A stretch of 64,000 bases of DNA from Ligula intestinalis (taxonomy: Eukaryota > Platyhelminthes > Cestoda > Diphyllobothriidea > Diphyllobothriidae), in contig JAYGXS010000003.1 of the NCBI GenBank assembly GCA_036362985.1, positions 87,543,526-87,607,525 of the forward strand. The letters run 5' to 3'. Made by a program: the position numbers and the translations under genes. The number at the start of each line of letters is the position of its first letter. Within the stretch, counting starts at the first letter, position 1. The notes under the pieces are model-generated. The model saw only the letters and a list, made by a program, of their open reading frames with translations, was not told the DNA's origin and searched no databases. Below are positions 5,276 through 39,727 of this stretch, one piece after another.

Positions 5276-5362
5276 TTTTGTGCACAGTGTTGACATGCTT
5301 ATTCAGCGCTCCCTTATTTTTGAAAGAATAGCCACAAATATCACAGGGGTAGTTTCGCAGAT
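5276..5362 (-). CDS. One-finger C2H2 zinc-finger exon, type A (Z1)
   Basis: This is the left-most of 13 intact exons. It is 87 nt, between acceptor TTTCAG and donor GTAGGCC. It opens with two bases of a split codon and ends with one base, so it is phase 1-1. The module reads L-R-N-Y-P-C-D-I-C-G and ends H-V-N-T-V-H-K, giving C-x2-C-x12-H-x4-H. When modules are joined, the linker between last His and next Cys is seven residues, the canonical length for DNA-binding C2H2 arrays. Helix contact residues (-1, 2, 3, 6) are N, G, A, K. The flank at 4790-5270 is shared with the other type A exons. A nucleic-acid-binding role is inferred from the family. Confidence 0.75.
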
Positions 5363-5406
5363 CTGAAACAAAAAACGACACAGTAAGACGGCATACTTGC
5401 ACCCGC

Positions 5407-5454
5407 CCGTTTAAAAGATATGGCCACACATTTCACACGGGAAATTTCGCAGAT
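5407..5454 (-). pseudogene. Truncated type A finger half
   Basis: An acceptor TTCAG followed by L-R-N-F-P-C-E-M-C-G-H-I-F then TAA (5411-5413) repeats the first half of a type A finger 92 bp upstream of Z1 on the minus strand. The helix and both zinc-binding histidines are missing. Confidence 0.7.
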
Positions 5455-5713
5455 CTGAATTTTAAAAAACAAAAAATTAAGCAAGGGGTATGCCGACAAA
5501 CCCCGTGATAGATTAAAAAGCGTCAGCTTTTTCGCAGTGAGAACTGCGCTAATTTGCTGCGATTATGAATTCTATAGGAACACCCTCACTCGCGGGCGTT
5601 CTCTGCTCTCTTTCATGTAGCAGCCAAATACATATCACAAGAAAATATTGACAAACGCATGGCAGGCAAAAAGACAGGGAGAAAGGTCGAAGAAGTGAAC
5701 AAAAGAGGCCTAC

Positions 5714-5800
5714 TTTTGTGCACAGAGTTGACGTGCCTCATCAGGTTTCTCCTGTCACTGAAAGAATAGCCACAAACATCGCACGGGAAGGTTCGCAGAT
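5714..5800 (-). CDS. One-finger C2H2 zinc-finger exon, type A (Z2)
   Basis: 87 nt, acceptor AAATTCAG, donor GTAGGCC. The finger starts L-R-T-F-P-C-D-V-C-G-Y-S-F and ends R-H-V-N-S-V-H-K with all four zinc ligands. Its helix contacts are D, R, N, R, unlike any other copy. It lies 351 bp upstream of Z1 in transcript order. Confidence 0.75.
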
Positions 5801-6157
5801 CTGAATTTAGAAAAAGAGAATTCAATCTACTAGATGCTGGGTTTATTTGCTCAGAGGCTTCCTTTACGTTAGACGATAATTAAAATGGCCATTCTACGAT
5901 AAAAAAACACGCTTTATGCAATGCATGTGAATTTGCGTCATGTTAGAGGAAAATTGCGTTTCTGAACAGAATTATGTGAAGGGTTAAGCTTCGTTGTAAC
6001 TTTCGCATAGGGCAGACTAGCCCTAGATCGACAAACGACGTGTAAAAAACGGTTTTTTTGTGGAAAATTCAACCTACTTAAAATTTGCACTCAAAATGAC
6101 TTTGTCTGAGGTCAGGGCACAATCCTGTGACATAAACGCGCTCACCGTTGGTCCGGT

Positions 6158-6170
6158 GGGGGGGGGGGAG
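6158..6170. repeat. Poly-G tract
   Basis: A run of about 12 G residues follows tccggt. The surrounding 6120-6240 resembles the tandem repeat at 19554-19700, for example the gcccaaggt blocks. Confidence 0.6.
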
Positions 6171-6417
6171 TTAGTGATGATATTAATGCGTACTTCGGTG
6201 CCTCCGCCCAAGGTTTGACTACACTGTCAACTGACCCCTGTAACTTTCTTATTTTACAGGATTATTACAATCTTATTTTTTCACTGGTATGCCCCGCCTG
6301 CGCTGTCCCCTAAAATCATTAGCGCTCCCCCAGACGGCACTACACCTACCCTATTTACAAACACTGAGCAAGAAATAAACGGGGGAAAAGCTCGAAAATT
6401 TAAACAAAGAGGCGTAC

Positions 6418-6504
6418 TTCCGTGCACATCGTTGACGTGGTTCTTCAGGACTCCCACCTCTTCGAAGGAATTACCACAAATACTGCACGGAAAGTTTCCG
6501 AGAT
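6418..6504 (-). CDS. One-finger C2H2 zinc-finger exon, type A (Z3)
   Basis: 87 nt, acceptor TTTCAG, donor GTACGCC. The finger reads L-G-N-F-P-C-S-I-C-G-N-S-F and ends N-H-V-N-D-V-H-G. The linker Lys after the last His is replaced by Gly and the usual linker Arg by Gly, so it is more diverged. The zinc ligands and splice sites are retained. Contacts are E, G, V, N. Confidence 0.7.
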
Positions 6505-6848
6505 CTGAAACAACAAAACAGCAGAGTAGGCGTTAGGATATTAGCCGAACCAAATGCTAGCAACGTTTTGAGGCTTTCCTAAGGCGTCCAGCTTAGCCAA
6601 AATGTCTTTGTTGGTTACCTCGGACCGCATAACAGGCGATGGCTTTCCACGCGGGATGATCTTAGACCGCACGCAAGCAGGAACGCACACAGGGCTACAT
6701 AAGGCCCGAGGGTCAACTGGTCGCGTGACGTTATCCCATTGTGGCCAACCAGGCCACAAGAGAACGCGCAGACAATCCCTTTCACCCCCTCCAGAACTAT
6801 GCCCTTCTTATTGAGTTCCTCCATGGGGAATTCAACAGGGCGTCATTC

Positions 6849-6879
6849 AACGGTGACACAGATGTCAGGTGTCACCGTT
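6849..6879. repeat. Perfect 11-bp inverted repeat
   Basis: Arms aacggtgacac (6849-6859) and gtgtcaccgtt (6869-6879) enclose nine bases. Two self-complementary GTTATAAC octamers follow at 6877-6884 and near 6906-6913. It could be a small hairpin or a protein-binding palindrome. No gene adjoins it. Confidence 0.6.
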
Positions 6880-7445
6880 ATAACATTAGCGACGCTGAAC
6901 CCGTCGTTATAACAGTAGGAGGATTAAATGCACTAGAGGCTGCTTTTACGCTCGAGTCGACGGTGGGCGAGCGAGTAGCTGCTGGCGTCGTCTAACGTAT
7001 GCCTACACGCAGAGTGAGCACAGCAACGCCTACATGTGTACAAATTTACCACACCAAAGCGACTCTCTGGTAGATGACAAGATGAGCGGAGTTTTACTTG
7101 AGCGATGTGCCCAAATCACATCGGCTACCCGTGCCAAAAGCCTACCGGTTCTCACTACGCACACAAGATATTCTAAATATGCGTAAGAATCTTGAACCAG
7201 CAAGTCACTGAGTCTGACTTTGATTCCTGGTACGAACAGGCATATCCTGTCAAATCCAGTGATAGATTCAAACACGTCAGATTCGTCTTGCGGAATAAGT
7301 CCCCCAGGGCCAGCGTCACTCGTTCGCTTTCTTCAAAAATAGTTCGGACATAAGAACATGGACTACACACAGAAATATTGACAAACACAGAGAGGTTGAA
7401 AGGACGAGGGGATAGCTTGAACGAGGAATCAAAAAGGAGGCGTAC

Positions 7446-7532
7446 TTTCGTGCACACTGTGGACGTGCTCGTTCAGGGCTCCCGCCTGTTTGGAACAATG
7501 GCCACATATTTCACACGGGAAGTTTGTCAGAT
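7446..7532 (-). CDS. One-finger C2H2 zinc-finger exon, type A (Z4)
   Basis: 87 nt, acceptor TTTCAG, donor GTACGCC. It reads L-T-N-F-P-C-E-I-C-G-H-C-S and ends E-H-V-H-S-V-H-E. The conserved core Phe is replaced by Ser, which may weaken folding, and the linker Lys is Glu. The zinc ligands are present. Contacts are Q, G, A, E. It is paired with type B exon Z5, with a 229-bp intron between them. Confidence 0.7.
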
Positions 7533-7761
7533 CTGAAACAGAAATGGGAGGGCACCACATTATGGTATTTATGAAGAAAGGAGCAAAACTTTCTAGTCCG
7601 CATTAAAGTCCGTTTGACAAGCAGCAGCAAAGTAGCATGCAGCAACTGCAGCGACTAACACGACGGTTTGACATTGATGCCATGGGTGACAAAACAGGGG
7701 GCGTTAAGAATTAAACAAAATATACATTCAAATGAATCTGTTCAGGTCAGAAAGGGCGCAC

Positions 7762-7848
7762 TTTTGTGAACACCATCGATATGCTCCTCGAGGCCTCCCT
7801 TCTGCGAAAATGCACGGCCACAGATCTCACATTCGAACTCGCGTACTT
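7762..7848 (-). CDS. One-finger C2H2 zinc-finger exon, type B (Z5)
   Basis: 87 nt, acceptor CTACAG, donor GTGCGCC. Type B modules start V-R-E-F-E-C-E-I-C-G and end E-H-I-D-G-V-H-K. They differ from type A by Val-Arg-Glu-Phe-Glu before the first Cys and by IDGVH after the first His. Contacts are Q, G, G, E. In transcript order it precedes Z4, and the exon phases are compatible. Confidence 0.75.
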
Positions 7849-8029
7849 CTGTAGACGAAAAAAACAAACAAAAAATCGATTGAGGTTTTGTAAACAGGAT
7901 AGCAATAAAATTGCCGAATTTACTGCCCTCTTAAATGAACAAAACCTTTGGTCTAACGGAAAGACACGTCACTAAGCTTGACTTGACACAGCAAGTATGC
8001 AGACGGTTTATAGGCTCAATTTGACTCAA

Positions 8030-8120
8030 TTGTGAAAACTTCGCGGCCTCAGTAGGAGTGGAACAAACACAGCAGGAAAGGCTTTTGCACTGGCCACACT
8101 CTACCACTGAGCTACGAGGT
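8030..8120 (-). ncRNA. tRNA-like Pol III unit in the zinc-finger cassette, copy 1
   Basis: On the minus strand there is a near-perfect A box (TAGCTCAGTGGTAGAG, 8099-8114), a B-box-like GTTCCACTCC (8054-8064) and then TTTT (8035-8038). An acceptor-like CCTCG/GAGG pairing encloses the unit. The A-to-B spacing fits a tRNA with a short insertion. It is best read as a tRNA-derived SINE or tRNA pseudogene carried along with the finger exons. Confidence 0.6.
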
Positions 8121-8847
8121 TCACCGTGAGCCGTGAATTTAATCCCACTTGAATCGATTTTACCCGCCAAATTTACGATACATAATCGGTAAACCTCCAT
8201 TCGAAAATGGCAGCGAAGCATCGAAACTACGAGTTACCCCTCTATCGATACTCAACGCGAAATTCTGACAAAATATAACTATGGTTGTTGAAAGGAGCAA
8301 ACGCACATCGTAGTTTTTACAAGTTCTGAAACATGCGAATTTACCTACATAAACAGGTCGGCTACAGGAACATGGACTCTGCGCCAGACATGCAGGCGAC
8401 GTCACGCTAAATGCCCGTGTCGTGTCCTAGATCCGGACTTCACCATTCTAGCCCTGACCTTTGACTGCGACTCCCAGAATAGCCTGTATGCCCATGGTGC
8501 ACTTGCATTTTTTCTTTAATACCCAGTGAACAACGTGTGCTTGATTTGTACCACTTATATTTCTCTGATTAAAGATTATAACATCATTATATGGTTTTAT
8601 AAGCCTTTTTCTCTACACTCTTTCAAGCGCTCATAAAAAGATGACCCTGGTTAACGTCATTTTTTAATGCGTGTACCACGCCGCAGTTTGTGACATCATT
8701 GCATGTACCACATATGGCGCACGTCGCAGTCAAAGTGTTAATCGAAATGCATCTAACCTAATCTCACCGCTACATAAACAACCAGCTCCTGGTGTGTGGC
8801 AGTGAACCAAGATAATCAAAAAACGTAGAACAGTACAAGCTTTTATA

Positions 8848-9232
8848 GTGCCCAAACATAAATATGAGTTGGCATTAACTCACTCACAGGGGATAAGCAG
8901 GTCGCTTAACCCGAATGGTAAGCCTCCATGCGAGACTGGGAACACATTACCGCAACTAAAATTCAGGGTTCTTTTCTTAAATTATCCTAAATATTAGCTT
9001 TAATATGTACACAACACATGTAGGCTCATTAAAAGAGACAAACACACAAAACAGGAGTTCTTTAAAGTTCTAAAGCATACGAATTCAAATATATAATATA
9101 CTTCAGAGACATGAACGCCTCACGCTACAGGACAGAGCATTTCCTATTCTCCTGTCCCACATTTGGACTTCACCCTCCTAGCTCGGTCGTTAACATTAAC
9201 CTGCCCGACTGGAGGGTGAGTAGGGGAGCAAT
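8848..9232. repeat. Dispersed repeat, copy 2 (paralogue at 3709-4075)
   Basis: About 385 bp parallel to the copy next to the assembly gap. This copy lacks the cggacttcctccattaatcc segment present in copy 1 and has an extra 60-bp insert near 8900-8955. Confidence 0.75.
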
Positions 9233-9581
9233 TGCTGGCTGAGTTTTACTTGAATAAGGTGCATAAATACATCAGCTACGCCTGCCACAAGCATCTTGGT
9301 CCTTACTACGTATACCAGACATGCTATAGGTGGCATAGAATCTTTCACGAGCGAGCTACTGACTCGGACTCTCAGACAGGCGTAACCTGTCAAACCCCGT
9401 GACAGATTCAAACGTCAGATTCGTCGTAAGGAATAAGTCCCCCGGGCCGGACTCACTCATTCGCTTCATACAAAAACAGTTCGGGTATAGGAACATGGAC
9501 TACACAAACAAATACTGACAAACACAGAGAAGGAAAACCAATGAGGGAAAGCTCGAAAAAAGGAAAGAAAAAGAGGCATAC

Positions 9582-9668
9582 TTTTGTGCACACCGTTGAC
9601 GTGCTTCTTTAAGGAATCCTCCTGTTTGAAACAACGGCCACAAATTTCACAAGGGAAGTTTCGCAGAT
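9582..9668 (-). CDS. One-finger C2H2 zinc-finger exon, type A (Z6)
   Basis: 87 nt, acceptor TTTTAG, donor GTATGCC. It reads L-R-N-F-P-C-E-I-C-G-R-C-F and ends K-H-V-N-G-V-H-K. Contacts are Q, D, S, K. It is paired with type B exon Z7 across a 272-bp intron, the same A-B arrangement as Z4-Z5. Confidence 0.75.
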
Positions 9669-9940
9669 CTAAAACAGATAACAGACGAGTAACATGATAA
9701 TCAAAATAAGATAATAATGAGGGCACCAGCTTATAGCAGTTATGAAAAAAGGATCAAAACTTGCTTGTCCTCATTAAAATCCATTTAACAAGCGACAGAA
9801 AAGTAGCATGCAGCAACTGCAGCGACTAACACGACGGTTTTACATTGATGCCATGAGGTACAAAACAGGGGGGGGGTGGCGTTGAGAATGAAACAAAATA
9901 TGCATTCAAATTAATCTGCTGAAGTCATAAAAAGGCGCAC

Positions 9941-10027
9941 TTTTGTGGACACCATCGATATGCTTCTCCATGTGTGTCTTCCGCGAAAATTCACGGCCAC
10001 AGATGTCACATTCAAACTCGCGTTTTT
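9941..10027 (-). CDS. One-finger C2H2 zinc-finger exon, type B (Z7)
   Basis: 87 nt, acceptor AACAG, donor GTGCGCC. It reads K-R-E-F-E-C-D-I-C-G-R-E-F and ends K-H-I-D-G-V-H-K. Contacts are R, T, H, K. A shortened remnant of the tRNA-like unit follows at about 10180-10215 on the plus-strand map, upstream in transcript order. Confidence 0.75.
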
Positions 10028-10510
10028 CTGTTAAAGCAAAAAAAGAAAAGAAAAATTATTTCGCTGAATCTACTGCCATCTTAAATGAAGAAAAGCTTTA
10101 GAAGAAAAGACACATGACCAAGCCTGGCTGGATACAGCAAGTATCCATGTGGTTGATACACTCAATTTGACGCAATTGGAAAACGCGGTGGGAGTCGAAA
10201 AGTCAACAGGCTCACTGTGAATTTAATTACACTTTTACCCGCCAAACTTACTGCTCGTATGGAACCTGATCGGTTAACCTCCATTCGAAACTGGTAGCGC
10301 ATTGTCGAAAATAGAAGTTACAGATCTTTCGCTACTGAAGGCAAAATTCTGGTCACTAATAAGGAGCAAAAACTCACATTATAGTTTTTTTCGAAGTTCT
10401 GAGGCTGTGCGAAAGAATAGTCAACGACGTAGAATTGTGGTGACTCCATCTTCGGCGACACGCCAGAGATTAGGTCATGTGATTACAAGCCTCGGCCTAC
10501 CTTTTTAACG

Positions 10511-10700
10511 GCCACATGCTCCGCTGCGAACGCGTGCATCTCCCGGCGGCCAGAAAGACGCGTACGCTCGTAGGCCGCCACAGTCCGGTTGACCAATCAC
10601 TTTCAAGGCCGACTCAGTAAGAACCCTACTACGATGACTGACATCCGACCCAAGTGCCAGTAACCTGGCCCATTAGAGGACGAATTGGAAAGCAATTGCT
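10511..10700. repeat. Dispersed LTR-like repeat, partial copy
   Basis: It shares blocks such as taggccgccac, ctttcaaggccgactcag and aagtgccagtaac with 21352-21760, 40905-41330 and 16915-16985. Only the left part of the unit is present here. Confidence 0.55.
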
Positions 10701-10734
10701 GGCGTAGTACAACTTACGTTCCTGTACTAGTTGC

Positions 10735-10880
10735 AGCTGCGATCAGGACTGATCTAGTCGGCCTCTATGATGCATTTTACGGTCCTTCTCCACGCGCGAT
10801 GATCAGTGGCAGCAAACATGGACAGGTAGAGCCATTCTTTTCGCCAGCGCCAGAAACCGAATGCCGATCCAACATTGGGA
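10735..10880 (-). pseudogene. RTE LINE 3'-terminal coding fragment
   Basis: The minus strand reads FWRWRKEWLYL then AATDHRAWRRTVKCIIEA and a stop. This is the characteristic C-terminus of RTE polyproteins (compare the AAANRHAW...GIIEAGK end at 15.6 kb). Only the last 50 or so residues remain. Confidence 0.65.
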
Positions 10881-10969
10881 GATTGGTGTAGCAGACCTTG
10901 GCCGCCGTCGGACGGGAGGGAACGCAACAAAGACGCGTCTGATGGCGGCTAACATCTGTGGTCGCCATG

Positions 10970-12065
10970 ACCGTGTAATCTTTCGCGGCGCTCTCCTTAA
11001 GCCCCCCAAACAGAGCTGCAGCGTTACCTACGGCTCTCTGCTCAGTCTGACGATCTTCAAAATCTACATGCGAGAGCTCCCACTCCCCTAGGCACATGCA
11101 CAAGTGGTATCGTACGTGAACGATGTTGAGTTCTTCTGCCAACACCATCACATCGATCAGGTTGAGCAGGTCTTCTCGGGGTTCATGCCTGATTTCGAAA
11201 ACTCATTCACCTAGCACGGAATGACGATCTCGGCAGCCGAGTCTTCCGTTATTGTTTTCATGCTAGATCCGAAGGGGTCAATCGTCGCCCGGCGACCATC
11301 TTCAACGGTGTGCCCTTACCAATCGTCCGTAAGCCTAGGCTTCTTGGCGTGCGTTTCGATCGGCTTTTCACGCTCGCACACCACGCCAAGAAAGTCACAA
11401 GTAAAGTGAGTCGCTGCACCAAGGTCCTCAAGCCTCTAGCAGGCACATCCTGGGACTGTGTGAAAGAGACTGCGACCATCACATTCAAAAGGGTGGCCAA
11501 GCCGCATCTTACGTGTGAGCCACCAGTCTGGTCTCCCACAATCAGGGCGGTTAAGGTCTGCTACACCAAACCTCCCTATGGTGGATCCATCTCTTCTCAT
11601 CTCCAGCCCCTCTTGACTATGCTGCTCCGACTTCTCCTCCTTGCCGCCGGGATTGAGGCCCAACCGGCGGAGTTCCGGATCCATCAAGGGCTACTTGCCT
11701 GCCTGCCCACAATCAGCTCTTTCAACATCCGCCGCCTTCAGTCAGTTCAGAACGGTGCCCTCCGCACGATCACGCGCTATAAATTGTCGCCTATCGAGCA
11801 TCGTCAAGCAGAGTTTTTTGCCTTAACGGTCGCCCCTCACAACACACGCCTAGGCCAGCAGTTCTGGTGGACCTGTTCGCAATTAGGCCATCCTAATCAA
11901 CACCGTTGCAACGTTCCTGAACCCAGCAGCAATGCTCGGCCGTCACTTCGAGCACTACTCAAGGCAGCTGTCGCCTCATCTCTCTCGGATATACCCGTTG
12001 ATCAATCTGCCACGATGAGAAAATTCCAGAGGAAAAACGAGGTTACCATTCTCCAGTCAAGTTGA
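10970..12065 (+). pseudogene. Jockey/ingi-like LINE reverse transcriptase, 3' part
   Basis: The segment reads SLLSLTIFKIYMREL then VVSYVNDVEFFCQHH, so the catalytic YADD box has become YVND (11113-11124). After a frame change it reads VRKPRLLGVRFDRLFTLAHH, VLKPLAGTSWD and RRLQSVQNGALRTIT, the thumb and C-terminal domain of jockey-superfamily LINEs of the ingi/jockey type. The thumb is split by a 180-bp foreign insert at about 11550-11730. The protein cannot be catalytically active as read. The exact clade needs a tree. Confidence 0.7.
11550..11730 (+). mobile_element. Insert with LINE 5'-end similarity inside the RT thumb
   Basis: The homology to the RT thumb breaks after VWSPTI and resumes at RRLQSVQNGALRT. 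Between them lies about 60 in-frame codons ending LLRLLLLAAGIEAQPAEF. Its DNA resembles the start of the next element at 12360-12402 (RILFLIAGVEPDPE) by eye at roughly two bases in three. It looks like a piece of a related element's 5' end captured within the first. Confidence 0.5.
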
Positions 12066-12342
12066 CCGCCCCTAATCTCCATAGTGCCTCCTGTTTGGCA
12101 TGGATGCAACAAGAAAACCCTATGGTCTTCCCAGTATTTATGGATAATCCGACCGATTGCACGACCGCCCAAGCAGCAAGCCTTCACGTTGGTGGAACCG
12201 ACTGTACGCATCTCCGGATGGACCTATCTCCGCATTGACTACAGCAAAAAGCTGCTTTTCCCTTACCTTCCCCTCCCCCCTCCTCCCCAATATCGAAATT
12301 TGCTAGTATACATGCCTATATCTCTACATCGTTTTTTCGAGA

Positions 12343-13737
12343 ATGGATCTTCCTCATCCGGTGAGGTTGATCCGAATCCTTTTTCTTATTGCCGGAGTCG
12401 AGCCCGATCCGGAACTTGCTCAAGGATCCATCAGATGGTTCTCTTCTACGTGCGTCAAACAGATCTTCCCAAACCAAGCGTGTGTCCTGTGTGTGCCTTG
12501 CAACAACTGGCAACACTTCCGCGCAAGAGGCCCTAACTGCTCGGATCTCACTTCCCTCCATCAATAGTGGCTCATTATACAGGTGCATAACCTGTCGTCA
12601 TCCGCGAAAAGTGCCTGCTCACACGCCTGTACGAGGGCTACCTTCACCTGCCTCATCATCACCTCTTGCAAGTCGGCAATCAACCCAGTTACCGCCATCT
12701 CTAATGTCATTGTCCACGAATTCAGCCTCGCAACTACCCGCACTGCCTATACCGCGGTCCGCCACGACTCAGTCTGCCTCACAACAACCTTCAGTACCGC
12801 CGCCGCTAATGTCGCTGACCATCCCAGACGCCTCACGTCTTTCTGACCTCAAAATCTTGCAGCCTTTCTTGGAAAACAGATGAGATCATTAAACTCCTCC
12901 GTGATCATGACATCAAAATAGCGGCCCACCAGGAGTCAAAGCTGTCAGCAAAGTCGAAGGCCCCACGTTTCCGGGGCTTTGTCGTCATCCGAAGAGACAG
13001 AGCTCGTAACGCTGGTGGTGGACTGGTCACCTTGGTCCACCACAGTATCAAATACCAGGAGCTGACCTCTGCAGTAACCTCCGCGGACTCGCCTCTGGAA
13101 TAGCTCAAGGTACAAGTTACCATTGGACCGTCCAGTTTGATTGTCCATAACGTATACATTCCTCCACAAAGCAGCTGTGATGCCAACTGCAGGCCATCAA
13201 TAGTCCACATGCTAACGGGTGATTCGAAACTCATCTTGGGCGACTTCAATGCCCATGACCTCTCTAACCTTTCCTGTACTAGAGGTGCTTCACTAGCCGA
13301 GGAAATCAACAACACCAACTTTTGGGTCCTCAACACGGATGGAACGTCCACGAGACTTCCTCATTCCGGTACTAGCGCTAGCCCTGACATTTCCGTCGTC
13401 AGTTGCGACCTATAACTATCAACCTCATGGGACTGTCCAGGCAAACTGAGCTCTGACCATCTCCCGATAGTTATCACAATCAGCACACATGCTTCCCCGA
13501 TTCGTAAAGAATGCTCACAAGCGCTTTATGAATCTACGCAAAGCCAACAGGCCCAGTTTCCTTAGTGAAACTGAGAAGCTCTTTGACCAGGCCCCTTTCC
13601 CTCCAGATGTCCGCCAAGGTGTATCGATTTTCAGTCGCATCATGCATACCGCCTCTAAGCACAACATTCCTGCGGGCAAAGTCTTTGATCCCATTCCAGG
13701 ATACCCTATCGACATAATCGAGATGGGTCAATTGGCC
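12343..13737 (+). pseudogene. Jockey/ingi-like LINE 5' half: 2A-like leader, Cys/His motif, endonuclease
   Basis: From ATG at 12343 the frame reads RILFLIAGVEPDPE, resembling the hydrophobic GxExNPGP signature of 2A-like peptides at the N-termini of some LINE proteins. A Cys/His motif of PHD type follows (C-x14-C-x2-C-x2-W-x-H spacing around ACVLCVPCNNWQHF). After a frame change comes a Ser/Pro-rich linker, then the APE endonuclease: IKIAAHQESKL, RRDRARNAGGGLVTLVHHS, LILGDFNAHD, and SSDHLPIVI after another frame change. Stops at 13101 and 13414 break it. It lies head-to-tail after the 3' half at 10.97-12.07 kb. Confidence 0.7.
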
Positions 13738-13739
13738 TA

Positions 13740-13952
13740 TGGGTGAACGCTAAATACCCTCATTTTCCTGAAGGGCCGTCCCGAGAACCCGGTCAGTGGT
13801 GCAGTTAAAGAGGATAGGCGACAAGACAAAACCTTGCCGAGTGCCAGACCGAATAGCCAAGAGTTCTGAGAGGTTGTTGTTGAGTAGAAACTGCGCAGTG
13901 ATGGAGTGGGGGGTATGCCTTCATTATGGCAAATATTTTTGTGGTACACCAT
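13740..13952 (-). pseudogene. RTE LINE reverse transcriptase fragment, inverted
   Basis: The minus strand reads NNNLSELLAIRSGTRQGFVLSP then LFNCTTDRVLGTAL, the RT motif B region of RTE elements. It sits exactly between two plus-strand LINE pieces, so it is either a local inversion of RTE sequence or a separate truncated insertion. Confidence 0.7.
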
Positions 13953-13955
13953 CTT

Positions 13956-15812: not shown

Positions 15813-15954
15813 TACACGACCTCTAACAGAAAAACTCGTAAATACATCCCTGTCAGGCGAAGACGCCTACACGCAGCATGAGCGCAGTAACGATCACTTA
15901 CAAGTAAATTTACCAACTCTTCACATCACCAGCGACCTGGTATATAACAAGATA

Positions 15955-16690
15955 TTGTCCAGCCAGCCAGAGGCTTGCACAAGCCAGTTGCTAAGAATGC
16001 TAAATACAGTGTCTACGTGTGCCACGTACGTCCTGCTTCTAATGATAGGCCAGAACCTTTCACCAGTAAGACACTGAGTCTACCTATCCGTCCTGATAGG
16101 GACAGGGGTATCCTGCCACACCCCGTGATAGATTCAACCCCGTCAAATGTCTATTCAGTGAGAATTGCGGGAATTTAACGATGAATTCCACAGGGCCAGG
16201 CTCACGAACTCGCTTTCCCTGCCCTCCCCAATGCGCCAGTCAATTGCGCGTTCGAAGAAAATATGGACAACTACCGAGTAGACAGAGAAACCAGAAAAAA
16301 TTCAAAGACAGAAACGAGAAGATACGTACTTTTGTGCACAATTTGGACGTGCCTCCTAAAGGCTCCCCCCTCCTTGAAAGAATGGCCACAAATATTGCAA
16401 GCGAAGTTCCGCAGGTCTGCAATGAACACAAAAAACAACACACTAACAGACTTCAGTGTACCAGATACTGAATTTGCTTGCTCTTAGGTTTCTTTTACGC
16501 TCGACGATAATGAAAAATGTTAGCGTACACGAAAAAAAATACACAACAGTAGCGAAAGATCACACTACAAAGTAACACTTACAAGCTCTATTTAATGTAA
16601 TCATATGAAAATTTACGTTTTTGAATCTGCAGCTTCACGATATTCACGTACTTTTGTTTTGGACCCTAAGGTTGAAGTCCAGTGACAGGT
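15955..16690. repeat. Recent duplication, left copy (partner 22965-23690)
   Basis: About 700 bp containing exon Z8 matches 22965-23690 almost perfectly in the same orientation, about 7.01 kb away. The match ends in gradual divergence near 16690. A 17-bp stretch near 16530 is absent from the partner. Confidence 0.9.
16330..16416 (-). CDS. One-finger C2H2 zinc-finger exon, type A (Z8)
   Basis: 87 nt, acceptor ATTGCAG, donor GTACGTATC. It reads L-R-N-F-A-C-N-I-C-G-H-S-F and ends R-H-V-Q-I-V-H-K. Compared with its twin Z13 it carries Ala for the conserved linker Pro and Phe for the helix Leu. Contacts are E, G, A, R. Confidence 0.75.
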
Positions 16691-17409
16691 TGGTAAGCGG
16701 TAAGTTAAATATATCATTTTCTGCCAGAATTTCTAAATAATTATTATAGTGATGAACATAGAGGGTTTGAAGTATCGGCTAAACACGACATAGAAACTGA
16801 CAGCACCCTCTGTGAATGTGGCCTCGCGTGGAAAATGGGTTTAGAAAGGTAGGCGTTAAGGATACGTTTAGGATTAGTTTCAAGGTTAGCCCATCGCAGA
16901 CATGGAATCAACTTCCCTTATCCCAAGTGCCAGTAACCCGGCCGACTAGAGGGACAGCTGAAAAGCAGTTGCTGGCGTAGTCCAAGGTCTCTGTCCAGCT
17001 TACGCCTCGTCAGTACGACCGTGTCGGACGAAGACGCCTACGCACGGCGTGAGCGTAGCAACGATTACTTACAGGCAAATGAACTACATTCTCACTTACA
17101 TCGCAGACAACTTGACAGATGACAAGATAACGCCCAGGCAGCCAGAGGCTTGCAGGAGCGTGGTGCCTGAGAATGCAAAATACATCGTTTACGCGTGCCA
17201 CTTACGTCCTGTGTTTCACAACGTTTACCACACTGACAAATGCGCTAAGTGGCCGTGAGGGTGAATTTCCCAGGGCCTGCCCCATTTGTTCTACTTCTCT
17301 GCTCTCCCCAACGTACTAGTCAATTGAGTGTCGCAGGAAAATACCGACAAACGCCAAGCAGGCAAAAGGACGAGGAAAAACTCGAAGAAACGAACAAAAT
17401 GAGGCGTAC

Positions 17410-17496
17410 TTTTGTGCACAGTGTTGACGTGCGTCTTCAGAGCTACATTATATTGGAAGAAATGGCCACAAATATCGCACGGGAAGTTCCGCAGAT
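17410..17496 (-). CDS. One-finger C2H2 zinc-finger exon, type A (Z9)
   Basis: 87 nt, acceptor TTTCAG, donor GTACGCC. It reads L-R-N-F-P-C-D-I-C-G-H-F-F and ends T-H-V-N-T-V-H-K. Contacts are Y, V, A, T, an unusual combination. The conserved cassette flank starts near 17015. Type B exon Z10 lies 545 bp away. Confidence 0.75.
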
Positions 17497-18041
17497 CTGA
17501 AACAAACAAAAAACAACGCATTAAGAGACTTAAGTGTAACAGAGACTGGGGTTATTTGCTCTAAGGCTTCCTTTACATTTGAGGATAATGATAATTGGTA
17601 GTCTACAGGAAAAAAGCCACAAAATTAGCGAAAGATCAGGCTAGGAAACAACGTTAACAAGCTCTATGTAAAGTAGCATTCCTAAAATTTACGTTTATCA
17701 ATCTGAAGGTTCACGATATTCGCATACTTCTGCCTGGGAACCTGACTCTTAAAATAAGCAAGTCAAGGCCCAATTATTAGTTTGTAGGCGAGCGAGCCTG
17801 GCCCTACGGTGATTAATCCGCAGGGCAAACTAGCACTACTGCGGCGACAAACAAGGCACGTTGGCTTATATCCTAAAAGAGATTACTCCATATTGACATC
17901 ACGGAAATCAATGGATGGCAGACAAAGAGCTCGCCTTCATTTCCCTCGACTATTGTAAGCGCGAGTTAAGATTACATGCGAAAGAATGAACAGCACCGCG
18001 CAAGAAACAAAACATGCGTACAAATGAATTTAGGGGTGTAC

Positions 18042-18128
18042 TTTTATGGACACTGTTAATATGCCTTCTCAAGCCTTCCTTCCGAGAAAAGCAAGCGTCA
18101 CAGGTCTCACAATTGAACTCACGTTCCC
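18042..18128 (-). CDS. One-finger C2H2 zinc-finger exon, type B (Z10)
   Basis: 87 nt, acceptor TTTTGCAG, donor GTACACC. It reads E-R-E-F-N-C-E-T-C-D-A-C-F and ends R-H-I-N-S-V-H-K. The Gly after the second Cys is Asp. Contacts are R, E, G, R. It is the most diverged type B exon that is still intact. Confidence 0.7.
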
Positions 18129-18619
18129 CTGCAAAAGAAAATAAGAAAAAAACAATAAGAGGTATGAACTTGGTTTGGCCAATTTTACCCCCACACCTCT
18201 AGGGCTTCAGCTTGAAGGAAGGGCAATTGACTAAGCCCGGCTTCAAACAGGAAGTGTGTGCGTATTCAACAAGAAAGGTGGGGTTACCCGTTAGCCTGCC
18301 TGGCGCGTCCACAGGTAGTGGCGCGGGTAGTGGCGCGGCCTTCAGCGAAATAAGCAGGCTCCCGGGTCTGGCGAATAAGCAGTCGCGGACACAGCAGCGA
18401 AAGTATTACCTGTGCGCGGAGGGCTAAGCTATGGTGCCCCGACTGCCTTATAAAATGCCGCAAGCCCGAATGACGGCACTGCGACATGGCGAGAGTGAAC
18501 CGCCATTAAGAGGTTTGCCTGTCAACACTACCTTGTGGTGAGGTTATTTAGCCAGAGTACTAGAAGAGACAAACCTTAACAAAGAATCAGAGCGGCTGTT
18601 GCGGACGCGCCTGTATGGC

Positions 18620-19240
18620 ACATGCCCAAGAAACCTCACGATATGATAATTTACGCTGCTATGACTGATGCTTCGTCGTCTGCGGGGACGGACGCGCTCC
18701 TCAATCAAGGTCCAGTGCTACAGGCGAATAATATGCAAGCTAGAGTATTCAACTCAAAACCCAACCGAGAACCGCCACTAAATAAAAAATTTAATTCATT
18801 CATTAAATAGGTTCGCATAGTCTCTATGAATATCACGTTGATGTCTGCTGCCTGTCCGAAGCCCAACTCTATAACTTAGGCGCCCTTACGTTTGACAAAA
18901 GGGGTCATTTTACGAAAATCTCCGTCGTCTCTCTGTATGCACTAACATCAGCTACCGAGCAGCAAAATGAAGACTATCTCTACTCACAGCTGAAGGAGCT
19001 AGTTAAAAGACTCCCAGGCAATGATCTGTTGCCGGGGATTGGAATGGGACTGGACCCGGTGATCCGTCAAACAGCTACCTTCTTGGTTGTTTTGGCCCTG
19101 GGTCTCGAAACGACAATGGTGAGAGGATGCTGCAGTTTGTTGAACAGAACTGACAGTTTTCCCCAACGTATGATTGCAGCAACGTTACAAACACCTAATG
19201 ACCCGGCATTTAAACGACGGTCAATCAGGGACATATAGAG
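18620..19240 (+). pseudogene. RTE LINE endonuclease, heavily decayed copy
   Basis: A leader similar to the one at 2.4 kb (SSSAGTDALLNQGPVLQANN) is followed by VDVCCLSEAQL, ISVVSLYALTSATEQQNEDY and QLKELVKRLPGNDLLP. These match the N-terminal and central RTE endonuclease. Internal deletions remove the GVAIA region and most of the C-terminal half. Confidence 0.6.
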
Positions 19241-19553
19241 GGTCCTGAGAAGGCCAATATGTACAGTAACTGCTTACTTACGAATTGTAAGTAGGGGTGA
19301 AGTTCCCCAATCCTCCTATTTTTATCGCGCTGGCCTTTGGTTCAATGAAGGTTCGATGATGATTTGCACTGTAGCGGGGTCTTCGGAAGGCCAACGTGTA
19401 CAATAACCGCTAAGGCCAGTTTATTAAGCAAACTAACTTTTCAAATTAACCATTAGAATAACCGCTTACACACAAGTTTTAAGTACGGTGGATTTTAAAA
19501 AATCTTCAAACTTCGCTCGTTCGCCACTACTCTGATTTGGGTTGGATCCTATT

Positions 19554-19700
19554 AAAATGTACCTCGTTGACCTCGCCCAAAGTCAGCGAACAACCCCCGA
19601 CATACATGCGCTTGCCGTTGGTCAGGTAGGAGTTACCAGTGATACTAAAATGCACTTCAATGTCCTCGCCCAAGGTCAGACAACATCCCCCAACATAACT
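19554..19700. repeat. Short tandem repeat of about 94 bp
   Basis: Two units share aatgyacntc...cctcgcccaaagtcag and runs of C followed by aacata. A related single unit lies at 6120-6240. Confidence 0.5.
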
Positions 19701-19883
19701 TTTTTAAACTTACATGATTATTGCGCGCTTATTTGTTTCCCAACAGGCCCAACCCATTCTATTGCGGCGATTAACCCAGCGGTCTAACTTATATTTTACG
19801 GGCGATAGACAGGGGGAGGGTCGTTGTGAATGAAACAAAAAACATGCATTTAAATAAACCTGATCAACTCTGAAAAGGCGCAC

Positions 19884-19970
19884 TTTTGTGGACACCATCA
19901 ATATGTTGCTGCATGCAGGACTTCCGCGAAAAGGCAGTGCCACAGATCTCACATTTGAACTTGCGTACTT
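19884..19970 (-). CDS. One-finger C2H2 zinc-finger exon, type B (Z11)
   Basis: 87 nt, acceptor TTACAG, donor GTGCGCC. It reads V-R-K-F-K-C-E-I-C-G-T-A-F and ends Q-H-I-D-G-V-H-K. Contacts are R, S, C, Q. The cassette upstream of it is fused to a truncated type A exon through a broken tRNA-like unit. Confidence 0.75.
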
Positions 19971-20109
19971 CTGTAAAAGGCAAAAACGAAAAAATTAGTT
20001 GAAGCTTTACAAACTGGACAGTGTCACAAAAATGCCCAATATACTGCCCTTCTAAATGCTGGATAAAGCAAGTATGCATATGGTTCAATTCAGTTGACCC
20101 AACTGTTAA

Positions 20110-20204
20110 AACTTCGCGGTCTCGGTGGGAGTCTAATGAAAACAACAGGGCTCCCACCTGTCTGAAATAATGGTCACACATTTCAAACAGGAAGTTTCGC
20201 AGAT
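20110..20204 (-). pseudogene. Truncated type A finger fused to a tRNA-like remnant
   Basis: The minus strand has an intact acceptor and L-R-N-F-L-F-E-M-C-D-H-Y-F up to about 20151, then switches to the 3' half of the tRNA-like unit (20110-20150). The first zinc Cys is Phe, and the rest of the helix and both His are lost. Confidence 0.7.
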
Positions 20205-20464
20205 CTGAAGCAGACAACAGATGAGTAACACGGCATTTAAAAAAAGAAATGGAAGGGCACCACATTATGGTATTTATGAAGAAAGGAGCAAAACTTTCTA
20301 GTCCTCATTAAAGTCCGTTTGACAAGCAGCAGAAAAGTAGCATGCAGCAACTGCAGCGACTAACACGACGGTTTGACATTGATGCCATGGGTGACAAAAG
20401 AGGGGGCGCTAAGAATGAAAAACTATGCATTCAAATGAATCTGTTCAAGTCAGAAAGGGCGCAC

Positions 20465-20551
20465 TTTTGTGGACACCATTGATATGCTGCACCAGGTTTT
20501 TCTTCTGTGAAAATGCACGGCCACAGACCTCACATTCGAACTCCCGTACTT
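20465..20551 (-). CDS. One-finger C2H2 zinc-finger exon, type B (Z12)
   Basis: 87 nt, acceptor CTACAG, donor GTGCGCC. It reads V-R-E-F-E-C-E-V-C-G-R-A-F and ends Q-H-I-N-G-V-H-K. Contacts are Q, K, N, Q, against Q, G, G, E in its duplicate Z5. Confidence 0.75.
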
Positions 20552-20730
20552 CTGTAGAAGAAAAAAAAACAAAAAATCGATTGAGGATTTGTAAACAGGA
20601 TAGCAATAAAATTGCCGAATTTACTGCCCTCTTAAATGAACAAAACCTTTGGTCTAACGGAAAGACACGTCACTAAGCTTGACTTGACACAGCAAGTATG
20701 CAGACGGTTTATAGACTCAATTTGACTCAA

Positions 20731-20821
20731 TTTTGAAAACTTCGCGGCCTCAGTAGGAGTGGAACAAACACAGCAGGAAAGGCTTTTGCACTGGCCACAC
20801 TCTACCACTGGGCTACGAGGT
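20731..20821 (-). ncRNA. tRNA-like Pol III unit in the zinc-finger cassette, copy 2
   Basis: This copy is the duplicate of 8030-8120 and nearly identical to it. The A box has one change (GCTC to GCCC, 20800-20815). The T run after the B box is kept as TTTT (20736-20739). Confidence 0.6.
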
Positions 20822-21351
20822 TCACCGTGAGCCGTGAATTTAATCCCACTTGAATCGATTTTACCCGCCAAATTTACGATACCTAATCGGTAAACCTCCA
20901 TTCGAAAATGGCAGCGAAGCATCGAAACTACGAGTTGCCCCTCTATCGATACTCAACGCGAAATTCTGACAAAATATAACTATGGTTGTTGAAAGGAGCA
21001 AACGCACATCGTAGTTTTTACAAGTTCTGAAACATGCGAATTTACCTACATAAACAGGTCGGCTACAGGAACATGGACTTTGCGCCAGACATGCAGGCGA
21101 CGTCACGCTAAATGCCCCAGAGGGATTTCTACTGTCGGACTTCACGCTTCTAACCTAATCCCACCGCTGCATAAACAACCAGCTCTAACAGGTTTGAGAC
21201 CATCGGCAGCGGACCAAGATAATTTTAAAAAAAACAGAAGAAGTGTATTTTGCGAAAGAAACGTCAATGACGCAGAGCTGTGGTAAATCCACCTTCGGCG
21301 ACACACCACACATGAGATCCCTTGGTTGCAAACCCCAACTTACTAGTCGGA

Positions 21352-21760
21352 CAGCCGCATGCTCTGAAGCGAACCCTTGCACGTAGCGGTGATGAGAAAC
21401 ACGCGTACACGTAGGCCGCCACTGTCAGTTTGGCCAATAACTTTCAAGGCCGACTCAGAAACAATCTCACTACAATGACTGTCGTCAGACCCGCACTTTG
21501 GACCAAGCCGCCCTCGCGGACGCTCGCGGACGCTCGCGGACGCTCGCGTACTGGTCCGATGGTCAAGTTCCCCCTACTTATTCCCTACTCCTTCTGTGCA
21601 GAATAAACTGTTCATATCACTCTGGTTTTCCATGTCTTCTCTTCTCCTAAGGAACCCAGCCCAAAGGTAGCAATTGCTAGGGTTTGACTTAATTAACTCC
21701 CCTGTGGTAGAATTGGCCCATCGCAGGCATAAAATCAACTTCTATTATGCCAAGTGCCAG
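21352..21760. repeat. Dispersed LTR-like repeat, fullest copy
   Basis: Shared blocks with 40905-41240 and, more weakly, 47385-47790 run in the same order. They are gcgtacacgtaggccgccac, ctttcaaggccgactcag, gtcagacccgcact, tggtccgat, cagaataaact and ccaaaggaacc. The AATAAA-containing block followed by a CTCTGG/CCATG stretch resembles an LTR R-U5 region. No internal retroelement genes adjoin it. Confidence 0.5.
21511..21550. repeat. 10-bp tandem repeat, four units
   Basis: The unit cgctcgcgga is repeated four times, with changes in the first and last unit. Paralogous copies at 41080 and 47610 have a single unit, so the array expanded here. Confidence 0.85.
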
Positions 21761-21769
21761 TCCAATTTA

Positions 21770-22860
21770 CTTGCACAAGTTGCAGCCTCGATTATGCCTT
21801 TTACGGTGCTTCTCCACGCGCGACTATCCGTGGCAGCAGATCTATGCAGATCGAGCCATTCTCTTCGCCAGCGCCAGCGCCGGTGACCGAATACCGAAGT
21901 TCAAGAACCACTTCCATGTCCTGATGGACTGAGTTGAGCAACATTTTGAGCTGACCCCCACTTCGACGTTTTAGGTCAAGGTCAGTAACAGTAGGCTCAT
22001 GCGGTTAACGGCGAAGAACGTTTTCAAACCACCTCAGTCGTCTTTCTTGGATTTCCTGGTACAACCCTGCGATGCTGTCGCAGCGAATGCGAACTACATC
22101 AGTTGATACAAAATCGGTGTACTTCACTCGAAGGGTGGTCTTCAAGCAGTAGTGGTCAAAGGCTTCCAGTTTAAATTCATCTTCCACGCGCATGGTCTAG
22201 AATTGGCATTCATTTAGAAGAACAGACTGTACGGATGCCCGTTACACGCGCACCTTTGTGGAGAGGGAGATTATCGCGTCGGGTCCATAGGCATTTTCGA
22301 AGGCTGGAGAAAACTCGTCGACATGCGGCAATTTGGGAGATAATGTCATCTTTAATCCGTCCGTTCGGCAGCAACTCCGCTCCGAGGCAGTTGAAACTGT
22401 CTACTTTTTCAAGCTAACAGCCGCTAGTCTCAAGAGGTGCCTTCCCTTGGGCAGAAATGCAGCATGAAAACACTTTTCTTCGCAACGTTTAAGGAAAAAG
22501 GACCGATTTCACGACACCATAGACTGTAGATCGCCAAAGCTTGAAGCTGGTACAGCGTTATCATCAGCACAGTCGACTTCAGTCAAACGGCGTTTGGGTG
22601 CAAGCAAAATATCACCATTTTCATGTAGGGCCTTTCCGAGAACCCAGTCAATGACGTAGTTAAAGAGAATGGACGACACGACACAGCCTTGAGGAACACC
22701 AGACCGAATATAGAAGGATTTTGACAAGTTGTTGTGGGCTTGAACCCACGAAGTGGTGGAGCGGTCGGATGCCTTCAGCATGACGAATATTTTTGTGGTA
22801 CACCATTTAATGCTAGTAGGAGCGGAGTCCAAGGCCTCCAGTAAACAAATACCTACTCAA
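21770..22860 (-). pseudogene. RTE-type LINE, 3' half, inverted copy
   Basis: In minus-strand order it reads VQAHNNLSKSFYIRSGVPQG and CVVSSILFNYVIDWVLGKAL, then motif C as CADD (22560-22571) in place of FADD. The thumb follows (FKLEAFDHYCLKTTLRVKYT and IQERRLRWFENVLRR), and then AATDSRAWRSTVKGIIEA. Several frame changes separate these blocks. It starts just before motif B, so it is 5'-truncated. Confidence 0.8.
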
Positions 22861-22964
22861 TAAAACCATGTCTTGAGAAAAAGCCTACGCACGGCGTGAA
22901 CGTAGCAGGAGGGAATCAACCCTATTCTATCTGATACCACCGAAGACATAGTATATAACAAGAT

Positions 22965-23690
22965 ATTACCTAGCCAGTCAGTGGCTCGCACGAGCCAGTT
23001 GCTAAGAATGCTAAATACAGTGTCTACGTGTGCCACGTACGTCCTGCTTCTAATGATAGGCCAGAACCTTTCACCAGTAAGACACTGAGTCTACCTATCC
23101 GTCCTGATAGGGACAGGGGTATCCTGCCACACCCCGTGATAGATTCAACCCCGTCAAATGTCTATTCAGTGAGAATTGCGGGAATTTAACGATGAATTCC
23201 ACAGGGCCAGGCTCACGAACTCGCTTTCCCTGCCCTCCCCAATGCGCCAGTCAATTGCGCGTTCGAAGAAAATATGGACAACTACCGAGTAGACAGAGAA
23301 ACCAGAAAAAATTCAAAGACAGAAACGAGAAGATACGTACTTTTGTGCACAATTTGGACGTGCCTCCTAAGGGCTCCCCCCTCCTTGAAAGAATGGCCAC
23401 AAATATTGCAAGGGAAGTTCCGCAGGTCTGCAATAAATACAAAAACAACACACGAACAGACTTCAGTGTACCAGATACTGAATTTGTTTGCTCTAAGGTT
23501 TCTTTTGCGTTTGACGATAATGAAAAATGTTAGTGTACAATAGTAGCGAAAGATCACACTACAAAGTAACACTTACAAGCTCTGTTTAATGTAATCATAT
23601 GAAAATTTACGCTTTTGAATCTGGAGCTTCACGATATTCATGTACTTCTGTTTTGGACCCTTAGACTTAAAATAGGCAGGTCAAAGTCCA
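22965..23690. repeat. Recent duplication, right copy (partner 15955-16690)
   Basis: It contains exon Z13. It joins the 3'-truncated RTE copy on its left, so the duplication may have been bounded by repeats. Confidence 0.9.
23341..23427 (-). CDS. One-finger C2H2 zinc-finger exon, type A (Z13)
   Basis: 87 nt, acceptor ATTGCAG, donor GTACGTATC. It reads L-R-N-F-P-C-N-I-C-G-H-S-F and ends R-H-V-Q-I-V-H-K. Contacts are E, G, A, R, identical to its duplicate Z8. It is the most upstream intact exon of the array in transcript order. Confidence 0.75.
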
Positions 23691-23699
23691 GTGACAAGT

Positions 23700-25267: not shown

Positions 25268-25513
25268 AAAAACAAAGACGCACGAGAAGTGCTGGCCTCC
25301 AGAGAACTTGCTACGTCAGGGGCTTTAGTGAGAATAGATAAGCATATTGCCGCATTTAAATCCCTCCTTGGAACACTTGAGGCGGTTGTTGCTGTCAGCG
25401 TTCCATAATTCACCTCACCTGCTAAAGGTGACGACGTTGGTGAGGGCTTCCACTCATCCCCGCTGCTTGCGCAGTCACTTTCACTGGATTCATTTGAGTC
25501 TTGCTCGGTATAA
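25268..25513 (+). pseudogene. Coding-like remnant of an unrecognised protein
   Basis: A frame between TGA (25265-25267) and TAA (25511-25513) has one internal TAA at 25406-25408. Both halves have protein-like composition: DAREVLASRELATSGALVRI and FKSLLGTLEAVVAVSVP before the stop, and SPAKGDDVGEGFHSSPLLAQ after it. Codon use looks ordinary. It may be a processed pseudogene or a decayed exon. I do not recognise it. Confidence 0.3.
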
Positions 25514-39639: not shown

Positions 39640-39727
39640 TTTCGCGCATCATATTGACGTGGGTCTTTAGGTGTGATCTTTATTTAAAAGCCTTTTTGAC
39701 AAATATCACACCTGAAGTTTTGTATAT
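39640..39727 (-). pseudogene. Dead type A finger exon
   Basis: The acceptor is intact, but the frame meets TAA after C-D-I-C-Q-K-G-F, the exon is 88 nt, and the donor GT is TT. It precedes a type B remnant in the standard A-B order. Confidence 0.75.

What the first reader, a model, noticed from the sequence alone, without database searches (positions are those of the whole stretch)
5276..23427. Array of 13 frame-neutral single-finger exons
Thirteen minus-strand exons are each exactly 87 nt, each encode one complete C2H2 finger, and all have AG acceptor, GT donor and phase 1 at both ends. Joined exons give the canonical seven-residue linker length, so any subset in any order makes a continuous poly-finger protein. 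Most known poly-finger proteins encode their fingers in one large exon. One finger per intron-separated exon in such numbers suggests a gene that evolves by cassette duplication and could use exon skipping to produce many finger combinations.
Basis: partly seen in the sequence, partly recalled or inferred. Interest (0 to 1): 0.88.

Follow-up and report, generated by a model that had tools for sequence, protein, structure and literature searches.

The report
Tapeworm gene, one finger per exon
This stretch holds most of a tapeworm gene for a DNA-binding protein whose thirteen zinc fingers each lie on their own same-sized exon, so fingers can be copied or dropped without breaking the gene; the layout is real, but nothing yet shows that the worm actually mixes the fingers.

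Summary
Seven more, decayed copies lie on the same strand, two inside and five outside the interval. Joined, they give a 499-residue open frame: 122-residue leader plus 13 fingers. In nine relatives from Schistocephalus, Spirometra and Sparganum 52 of 55 finger spacings are 29 residues, i.e. 87 nt. So this is a diphyllobothriidean-type poly-finger gene, not scattered repeats. Cassette duplication is directly visible (92% and 87% identical ~1-kb blocks). DNA-contact residues vary most. Combinatorial exon skipping is permitted but unshown; no RNA of this worm was available. New variant of a known kind.

The parts
29101..29145 (-). Exon 1 (coding part): ATG...MCNRAGSLLLVSIKQ, donor CAA|gtgcgg, phase 0; acceptor ttgcag one base before ATG
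   Evidence: Only weak tblastn matches to SLLL[IV]GIK[HQ] of P0123 (E 12) and P0004 (E 13); 7 of 15 residues as in P0123; accepted on order, strand and length
25644..25688 (-). Exon 2, 45 nt, EERLTNKQTVLEPCK, acceptor ttacag, donor gtagtt, phase 0/0
   Evidence: Scan with five relatives: score 11.4, next best in the interval -2.4, maximum 3.0 in 50 mononucleotide shuffles; 5 of 15 residues and the same length as in P0123
25574..25603 (-). Micro-exon 3, 30 nt, ASESVSPNRL, donor gtaaga, phase 0/0, flanked by 40- and 43-nt introns
   Evidence: 8 of 10 residues identical to P0123 ASESIPPNRL at the same place; tblastn E only 2.2 because so short
25284..25530 (-). Exon 4, 247 nt, acidic/Ser-rich leader with SESDCASSGDEWKPSP, donor CTTCTC|gtgcgt, phase 0 in, phase 1 out
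   Evidence: tblastn with P0123: 76.3 bits, E 3.5e-19, 56% over 79 columns; P0122 E 2.6e-10, P0006 2.6e-9, P0004 9e-9, P0166 4e-7, P0022 1.6e-6, P0164 2.8e-6, P0228 2.3e-4; P0003 not significant (E 7.4)
23341..23427 (-). Finger exon A23, 87 nt
20465..20551 (-). Finger exon B20, 87 nt
20145..20204 (-). Dead type-A finger exon inside the gene: first Cys and donor lost, acceptor kept
19884..19970 (-). Finger exon B19, 87 nt
18042..18128 (-). Finger exon B18, 87 nt
17410..17496 (-). Finger exon A17, 87 nt
16330..16416 (-). Finger exon A16, 87 nt; ~1-kb block 87% identical to that of A23
9941..10027 (-). Finger exon B10, 87 nt
9582..9668 (-). Finger exon A9, 87 nt
7762..7848 (-). Finger exon B7, 87 nt; ~1-kb block 92% identical to that of B20
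7446..7532 (-). Finger exon A7, 87 nt; core Phe replaced by Ser
6418..6504 (-). Finger exon A6, 87 nt
5714..5800 (-). Finger exon A58, 87 nt
5390..5454 (-). Dead type-A finger exon inside the gene: stop codon, no donor, acceptor kept
5276..5362 (-). Finger exon A53, 87 nt; last intact one in the window
39640..40083 (-). Dead B-A exon pair upstream of exon 1 (39996-40083 and 39640-39727)
   Evidence: block 39699-41282 matches 20176-21761 at 65%
45557..45643 (-). Dead type-A exon upstream of exon 1 (Cys to Arg, acceptor lost, GT kept)
   Evidence: block 45589-45981 matches 23375-23753 at 68%
48082..48166 (-). Dead finger exon, no AG-87-GT
   Evidence: E 0.0012, the weakest of the seven
53838..53921 (-). 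Dead finger exon, frame-shifted (85 nt from AG to GT)

Best explanation
The window holds most of a poly-C2H2 DNA-binding protein gene of a diphyllobothriidean-type tapeworm, on the minus strand from 29145 to at least 5276. Four 5' exons encode an acidic leader; then each finger plus its whole linker is one symmetric phase-1/1, 87-nt exon. Default splicing most likely joins the exons in order, giving a protein with about 13 fingers in tandem that can read a long DNA site, probably as a nuclear regulator or repressor. The locus evolves by copying ~1-kb intron-exon-intron cassettes, singly or as B-A pairs; because exon ends are interchangeable, a copy adds a finger, and a copy with broken splice sites can be skipped and decay. 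Residues that contact DNA change fastest. Shown: exon anatomy, open frame, a strong leader exon and three weaker ones in the order of a relative's protein, cassette duplicates, dead copies, contact-residue diversity. Inferred: that this locus is expressed, that all 13 exons enter one mRNA, that dead exons are skipped, nuclear and repressor function.
For: 13 of 13 exons AG-87-GT, phase 1/1, pyrimidine-rich tract by eye; 169 of 169 joins open; exon 4 matches 8 of 9 relatives' leaders at E 2.3e-4 or better, best 3.5e-19, against a best of 0.02 on the reversed window; exons 1-3 co-linear with S. solidus P0123 with exact lengths of 15, 15 and 10 residues; nine named diphyllobothriidean proteins are continuous arrays, 52 of 55 spacings = 29 aa, against 421 of 2523 in the 226 other proteins of the two capped lists; joined fingers give zf-C2H2 E 6.9e-69; 0 of 7 decayed copies keep the AG-87-GT layout; duplicated blocks 92% and 87%; framework codons dN/dS 0.45 within type A and within type B, contact codons 2.4; contact columns more variable than 99.9% of 10,626 four-column choices; the 13 fingers form one clade among 77 (support 0.81, midpoint rooting); exon less diverged than introns in the A23/A16 block (2.3% against 9.2%, p 0.025).
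Against: No RNA evidence from this organism. The two best hits of the joined fingers are locust proteins at 30% identity, so fingers alone do not place the gene; the leader does. The leader exon found no protein in the 5.8-billion set at E <= 10 among 179 candidates. A leader-to-first-finger exon that relatives have was not found, nor a terminal exon; a 100-N gap lies downstream at 3590-3689. Exons 1-3 rest on weak local matches, order and length. Donors deviate from MAG|GTRAGT. Over all seven variable helix positions type B gives dN/dS 0.84, and contacts without B18 give 1.75. In the B20/B7 block the exon differs more than its flanks (13.8% against 3.3%), synonymous sites included (4 of 17.5), which points to exon exchange or conversion rather than simple selection. 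All these values rest on few, non-independent exons.
Confidence: 0.82

Rival explanations
1. Combinatorial splicing: exons are skipped or chosen in many combinations (Dscam-like diversity), giving many proteins with different finger sets and DNA targets.
For: Frame-neutral exons, any pair joins without a stop; weak donors could favour skipping; finger numbers differ among relatives, 4 to 9.
Against: No transcript shows it. Symmetric phase is also expected just from cassette duplication. Relatives are long continuous arrays, not single-finger choices. I did not search for selector/docking RNA structures.
Confidence: 0.17
2. Variable length by early ends: transcripts stop in the intron after one of the finger exons, making proteins with few or many fingers.
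For: P0123 ends ...GIHK-SMCLFLF..., which resembles read-through of the donor of window exon A9 (HKSMPLFLSFF); P0166 ends HKGTLFFSEVP. Read-through frames in the window stop 5 to 45 residues after the exon.
Against: At most 2 of 4 S. solidus and 0 of 5 Spirometra/Sparganum proteins look so; could be unspliced RNA or assembly artefacts. No AATAAA or ATTAAA within 850 nt downstream of the last intact exon.
Confidence: 0.2
3. A decaying pseudogene or relic array without a protein product.
For: 7 of 20 copies dead; one intact finger lost its core Phe; reverse-transcriptase frames in introns; no leader-to-finger exon or 3' end found.
Against: 13 exons keep frame, all zinc ligands and splice sites together; framework codons dN/dS 0.45; open leader exons.
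Confidence: 0.08
4. Dispersed finger-bearing repeats (mobile cassettes) not forming a gene.
For: Copies lie in retroelement-rich DNA and carry flanking sequence when duplicated. Genome-wide spread could not be tested.
Against: All 20 copies are on one strand; the 13 intact ones lie in order behind leader exons of a known protein family.
Confidence: 0.03

Closest known systems
Diphyllobothriidean SSGDEW-leader poly-C2H2 proteins (S. solidus P0122, P0123, P0166, P0228; Spirometra P0004; Sparganum P0006, P0164)
   Same: Leader of the type SLLLxGIKQEE...SESDxxSSGDEWQPSP (exact motif varies), 29-residue finger period, VHKxLRxF linkers
   Different: 4 to 9 fingers against 13 here; window fingers form their own clade; exon structure of the relatives not seen
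Sparganum SET/PR-domain finger proteins labelled prdm7/prdm9 (P0003, P0022)
   Same: 29-residue fingers with the same linker type; P0022 also matches the leader exon (E 1.6e-6), P0003 does not (E 7.4)
   Different: They carry a PR/SET domain between leader and fingers; none found in this window
Vertebrate KRAB zinc-finger genes and PRDM9
   Same: Tandem fingers, lineage-specific expansion; positive selection at DNA-recognition positions is stated for Prdm9 in the abstract of PMC3890296 (listing)
   Different: KRAB fingers mostly in one exon (passages, PMC5509000 and PMC2865497); 28-residue unit with TGEKP linker (passage, PMC2443715); KRAB or SET effector. PRDM9 fingers in one exon: recalled
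Xenopus TFIIIA (gene structure recalled, no call)
   Same: Fingers split over several exons
   Different: Unrelated, fixed nine fingers, no recent cassette duplication known to me
Dscam (abstract start of PMC1397879) and lola (recalled) type exon arrays
   Same: Array of homologous exons in one orientation
   Different: There one exon is chosen; here joined exons make a sensible continuous protein

Membership tests
C2H2 poly-zinc-finger proteins | Tandem CX2CX12HX3-5H fingers with ~7-residue linkers | tested here: met
   13 fingers; zf-C2H2 E 6.9e-69 on the joined exons
Diphyllobothriidean SSGDEW-leader finger family | Leader exon motif upstream of the fingers, same strand | tested here: met
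   Exon 4, E 3.5e-19 to P0123; the motif occurs in 7 of 235 fetched proteins, all 7 diphyllobothriidean
Diphyllobothriidean SSGDEW-leader finger family | 29-residue finger period | tested here: met
   Exons of 87 nt; relatives 52 of 55 spacings
Diphyllobothriidean SSGDEW-leader finger family | Stretch joining leader to first finger (...QYPKxE... in most relatives) | tested here: inconclusive
   Profile of 7 relatives finds nothing convincing in the window (best E 0.9, outside the interval); short and variable, so it may be missed or absent
PRDM9-like SET-finger proteins | PR/SET domain before the fingers | tested here: not met
   tblastn with whole P0003 and P0022: best match in the SET part E 5.3 and 6.2, not significant
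Gene with combinatorial exon splicing | Multiple mRNAs with different exon sets | not testable with these tools
   No RNA of this organism held
KRAB-type finger genes | Fingers in one exon, TGEKP linker, KRAB box | tested here: not met
   One exon per finger, linker without TGEKP; no Pfam match for exon 4 at E 0.001

The most novel reading that the evidence does not exclude
A tapeworm finger gene that uses interchangeable one-finger exons, by skipping and by early ending, to make a repertoire of DNA-binding proteins of different length and specificity from one locus, while cassette copying and exon exchange renew the contact residues, perhaps in an arms race with the retroelements that fill its own introns.
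Probability: 0.15. Interest if true: 0.85.

Novelty: new variant of a known kind. Interest (0 to 1): 0.55.

Why it matters
Finger arrays are best studied where they sit in one exon and change like minisatellites. Here each finger is a self-contained, frame-neutral exon, so gain, loss and decay of single fingers can be read directly from DNA, and the same layout would allow splicing to choose fingers. It makes testable whether finger-number change in invertebrate arrays runs through recombination in introns, and whether tapeworm finger families evolve like vertebrate KRAB-ZNF and PRDM9 genes.

Tried and rejected
Searching the window's own genome: the same request was sent three times and never answered, so genome-wide copy number is open. 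Protein search with the leader exon alone found nothing at E <= 10 among 179 candidates, although P0123 matches it by tblastn (no composition correction, no low-complexity filter); a composition correction on a Ser/Pro-rich stretch is my guess. Terminal exon: patterns from relatives' tails gave no candidate on the minus strand. Leader-to-finger exon: not found. tRNA, Rfam: nothing. The sigma-70/terminator scan does not apply to a eukaryote and is not used. Ten paper searches listed no paper whose title or abstract start describes a one-finger-per-exon array or tapeworm finger exons; I saw listings of at most 20 papers per search, and passages of eight papers, so this is no proof of absence. 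Rejected: mobile repeats (one strand, leader exons), lola-type terminal exons as the default (relatives are continuous arrays), PRDM9 orthologue (no SET found); two of its commands failed on a file-type error; the profile searches in the same call worked; the printed output was cut in the middle (part of the P0166 rows). One search stopped on a script error after its first two results; the third part was redone.
Full report
WHAT IS THERE. Each of the 13 has YAG exactly 17 nt upstream of the first Cys codon and GT exactly 4 nt downstream of the last His codon, so each exon is 17+66+4 = 87 nt with phase 1 at both ends. By eye, pyrimidine-rich tracts precede the acceptors. Every exon ends in A, so the split codon is N, K or R; 169 of 169 ordered joins are open. 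In 13 of 13 the frame hits a stop after the donor (acceptor to stop 34 to 74 residues), so a poly-finger protein needs splicing.

DEAD COPIES. A DNA profile of the 13 finds seven more copies, all minus strand: at 20204 and 5454 inside the interval, and at 39727, 40083, 45643, 48166 and 53921 outside it (the one at 48166 is weakest, E 0.0012). None of the 7 keeps the AG-87-GT layout: they show stops, lost Cys, frame shifts or lost splice sites, though 5 keep the CAG acceptor and 1 a GT in place. The 13 intact copies were chosen by Cys/His pattern and absence of stops, so frame was part of the choice; splice sites were not, and all 13 have both.

TWO TYPES AND CASSETTES. There are eight type-A and five type-B exons. 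B is followed closely by A in several places (gaps of 229, 272, 260 and 269 nt for B7-A7, B10-A9, B20-dead A and the dead pair at 40.1/39.7 kb; 545 nt for B18-A17). Self-comparison shows 7474-8416 against 20146-21117 at 92% and 15934-16887 against 22945-23911 at 87%, each about 1 kb with a finger exon inside, and an older B-A duplication 7086-8039 against 9238-10184 at 73%. Three parts of the dead upstream region 39.7-46 kb match 20.2-23.8 kb at 65-69%. So growth by copying intron-exon-intron cassettes is directly visible.

THE REST OF THE GENE. Searching with the joined fingers gave Sparganum and Spirometra proteins among the best hits, although the two best were locust proteins at 30% identity; a profile of four of the tapeworm proteins added four Schistocephalus solidus proteins. 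Leaders of 8 of the 9 relatives match the window at 25530-25284 with E 2.3e-4 or better (P0123: 76.3 bits, E 3.5e-19, 56% over 79 columns; P0003 does not, E 7.4); the best match on a reversed-window control has E 0.02. Upstream of this I found, in order and on the same strand, a 30-nt micro-exon (ASESVSPNRL against ASESIPPNRL, E 2.2 because so short), a 45-nt exon (EERLTNKQTVLEPCK; score 11.4, 50 shuffles at most 3.0) and a first coding exon MCNRAGSLLLVSIKQ at 29145 (tblastn E 12-13). Each is weak alone; together their lengths, 15, 15 and 10 residues, reproduce P0123 without a gap, and the two introns after exons 2 and 3 are 40 and 43 nt. Exon 4 ends in phase 1, which fits any finger exon. The joined model is a 499-residue open frame, 122 leader residues and 13 fingers, without a terminal tail. 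Not found: the stretch that in relatives links leader and first finger and the 3' end; a 100-N gap lies at 3590-3689. The leader exon alone found no protein at E <= 10 in the large set.

RELATIVES. In the nine named diphyllobothriidean proteins, 52 of 55 finger-to-finger spacings are exactly 29 residues, i.e. 87 nt; among the 226 other proteins of the two capped hit lists 421 of 2523 are 29 and 1271 are 28 (where the pattern for the nine was slightly stricter; the looser pattern gives the same 52 of 55). The relatives have 4 to 9 fingers. P0123 and perhaps P0166 of S. solidus end in what looks like read-through past a finger donor (HKSMCLFLF..., HKGTLFFSEVP), much like the read-through of window exon A9 (HKSMPLFLSFF). 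I believe the S. solidus entries come from a transcriptome (accession style recalled; PMC4891850, passages read, describes such a transcriptome and its TSA submission; the word zinc does not occur in its main text); if so, they show that such arrays are transcribed. Two Sparganum relatives carry a PR/SET domain between leader and fingers (P0003: SET E 2.5e-9, PRDM2_PR E 2.8e-34; P0022 by its precomputed Pfam list); the window shows none. The 13 window fingers form one clade among 77 fingers (midpoint-rooted tree, support 0.81; the 8 type-A fingers 0.91), so they probably multiplied in this locus or lineage.

SELECTION. Nei-Gojobori counts over all pairs give, for type A, dN/dS 0.45 outside the helix positions and 2.4 at DNA-contact positions -1, 2, 3, 6; for type B 0.45 and 2.4; for whole exons 0.73 and 0.55. 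Less favourable: all seven variable helix positions give 2.1 for A but 0.84 for B, and B without B18 gives 1.75 at contacts. Within types, the four contact columns differ more than 99.9% of all 10,626 four-column choices among the 24 non-ligand columns; position 5, not a classical contact, is as variable (A23 left out). The A23/A16 block has fewer exon than flank differences (2 of 87 against 78 of 850, p 0.025), as expected under constraint; the B20/B7 block has more (12 of 87 against 28 of 852, p 1.2e-4; the flank count there includes part of the neighbouring A exon). As B20/B7 also differ at synonymous sites (4 of 17.5), exchange of the exon with another copy is at least as likely as point selection. 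The numbers are small and pairs are not independent.

CONTEXT. Reverse-transcriptase frames lie in the introns and around the gene: RVT_1 in 6 of 10 frames tested, 2 of these below Pfam's cut-off; one further frame holds only the endonuclease; 3 match nothing. Window G+C is 44% overall (base counts), compatible with but no proof of Spirometra (46%, PMC4265353, passages read). Expansion and contraction of C2H2 families in Spirometra/Sparganum is in print (PMC8166898, passages read); exon layout is not mentioned in those passages. The species of the window is unknown; I call it diphyllobothriidean-type by its relatives.

VERDICT. The anatomy is as described and the gene is real with good confidence. 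'One finger per exon, grows by cassette' is supported. 'Exon skipping makes many combinations' is permitted by frame, not shown. In humans 78% of long C2H2 repeats lie in one exon, in zebrafish 11% (PMC1553488, passages read), so multi-exon arrays are not unheard of; a strict one-finger, 87-nt, phase-1/1 array of 13 with visible cassette turnover is, as far as my searches went, a new variant.

Noticed in passing
P0003 and P0022 (Sparganum proliferum): Proteins labelled prdm7/prdm9 combine a PR/SET domain with the same 29-residue finger type: a tapeworm SET-finger family worth comparing with PRDM9.
   Followed up: partly
window 25574-25688: Two tiny exons (45 and 30 nt) separated by a 40-nt intron, with a 43-nt intron after them, of the same lengths as the matching stretches of a Schistocephalus protein.
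   Followed up: yes
window 59587-62259 and 41324-42610, plus strand: Long uninterrupted retroelement frames (endonuclease and reverse transcriptase; reverse transcriptase).
   Followed up: partly
window 7762-7848 and 20465-20551: Exon pair differs 13.8% within blocks whose flanks differ 3.3%, synonymous sites included: looks like exon exchange or conversion.
   Followed up: partly
window 29145: The start codon lies one base after an acceptor-like site (ttgcag|aATG), as expected for a spliced 5' UTR or a trans-spliced leader.
   Followed up: no
P0160 and P0230 (Anoplocephala, Hymenolepis): Tapeworm proteins of another order share runs of 29-residue finger spacing and similar linkers (4 of 14 and 6 of 7 spacings), without the SSGDEW leader motif.
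   Followed up: no
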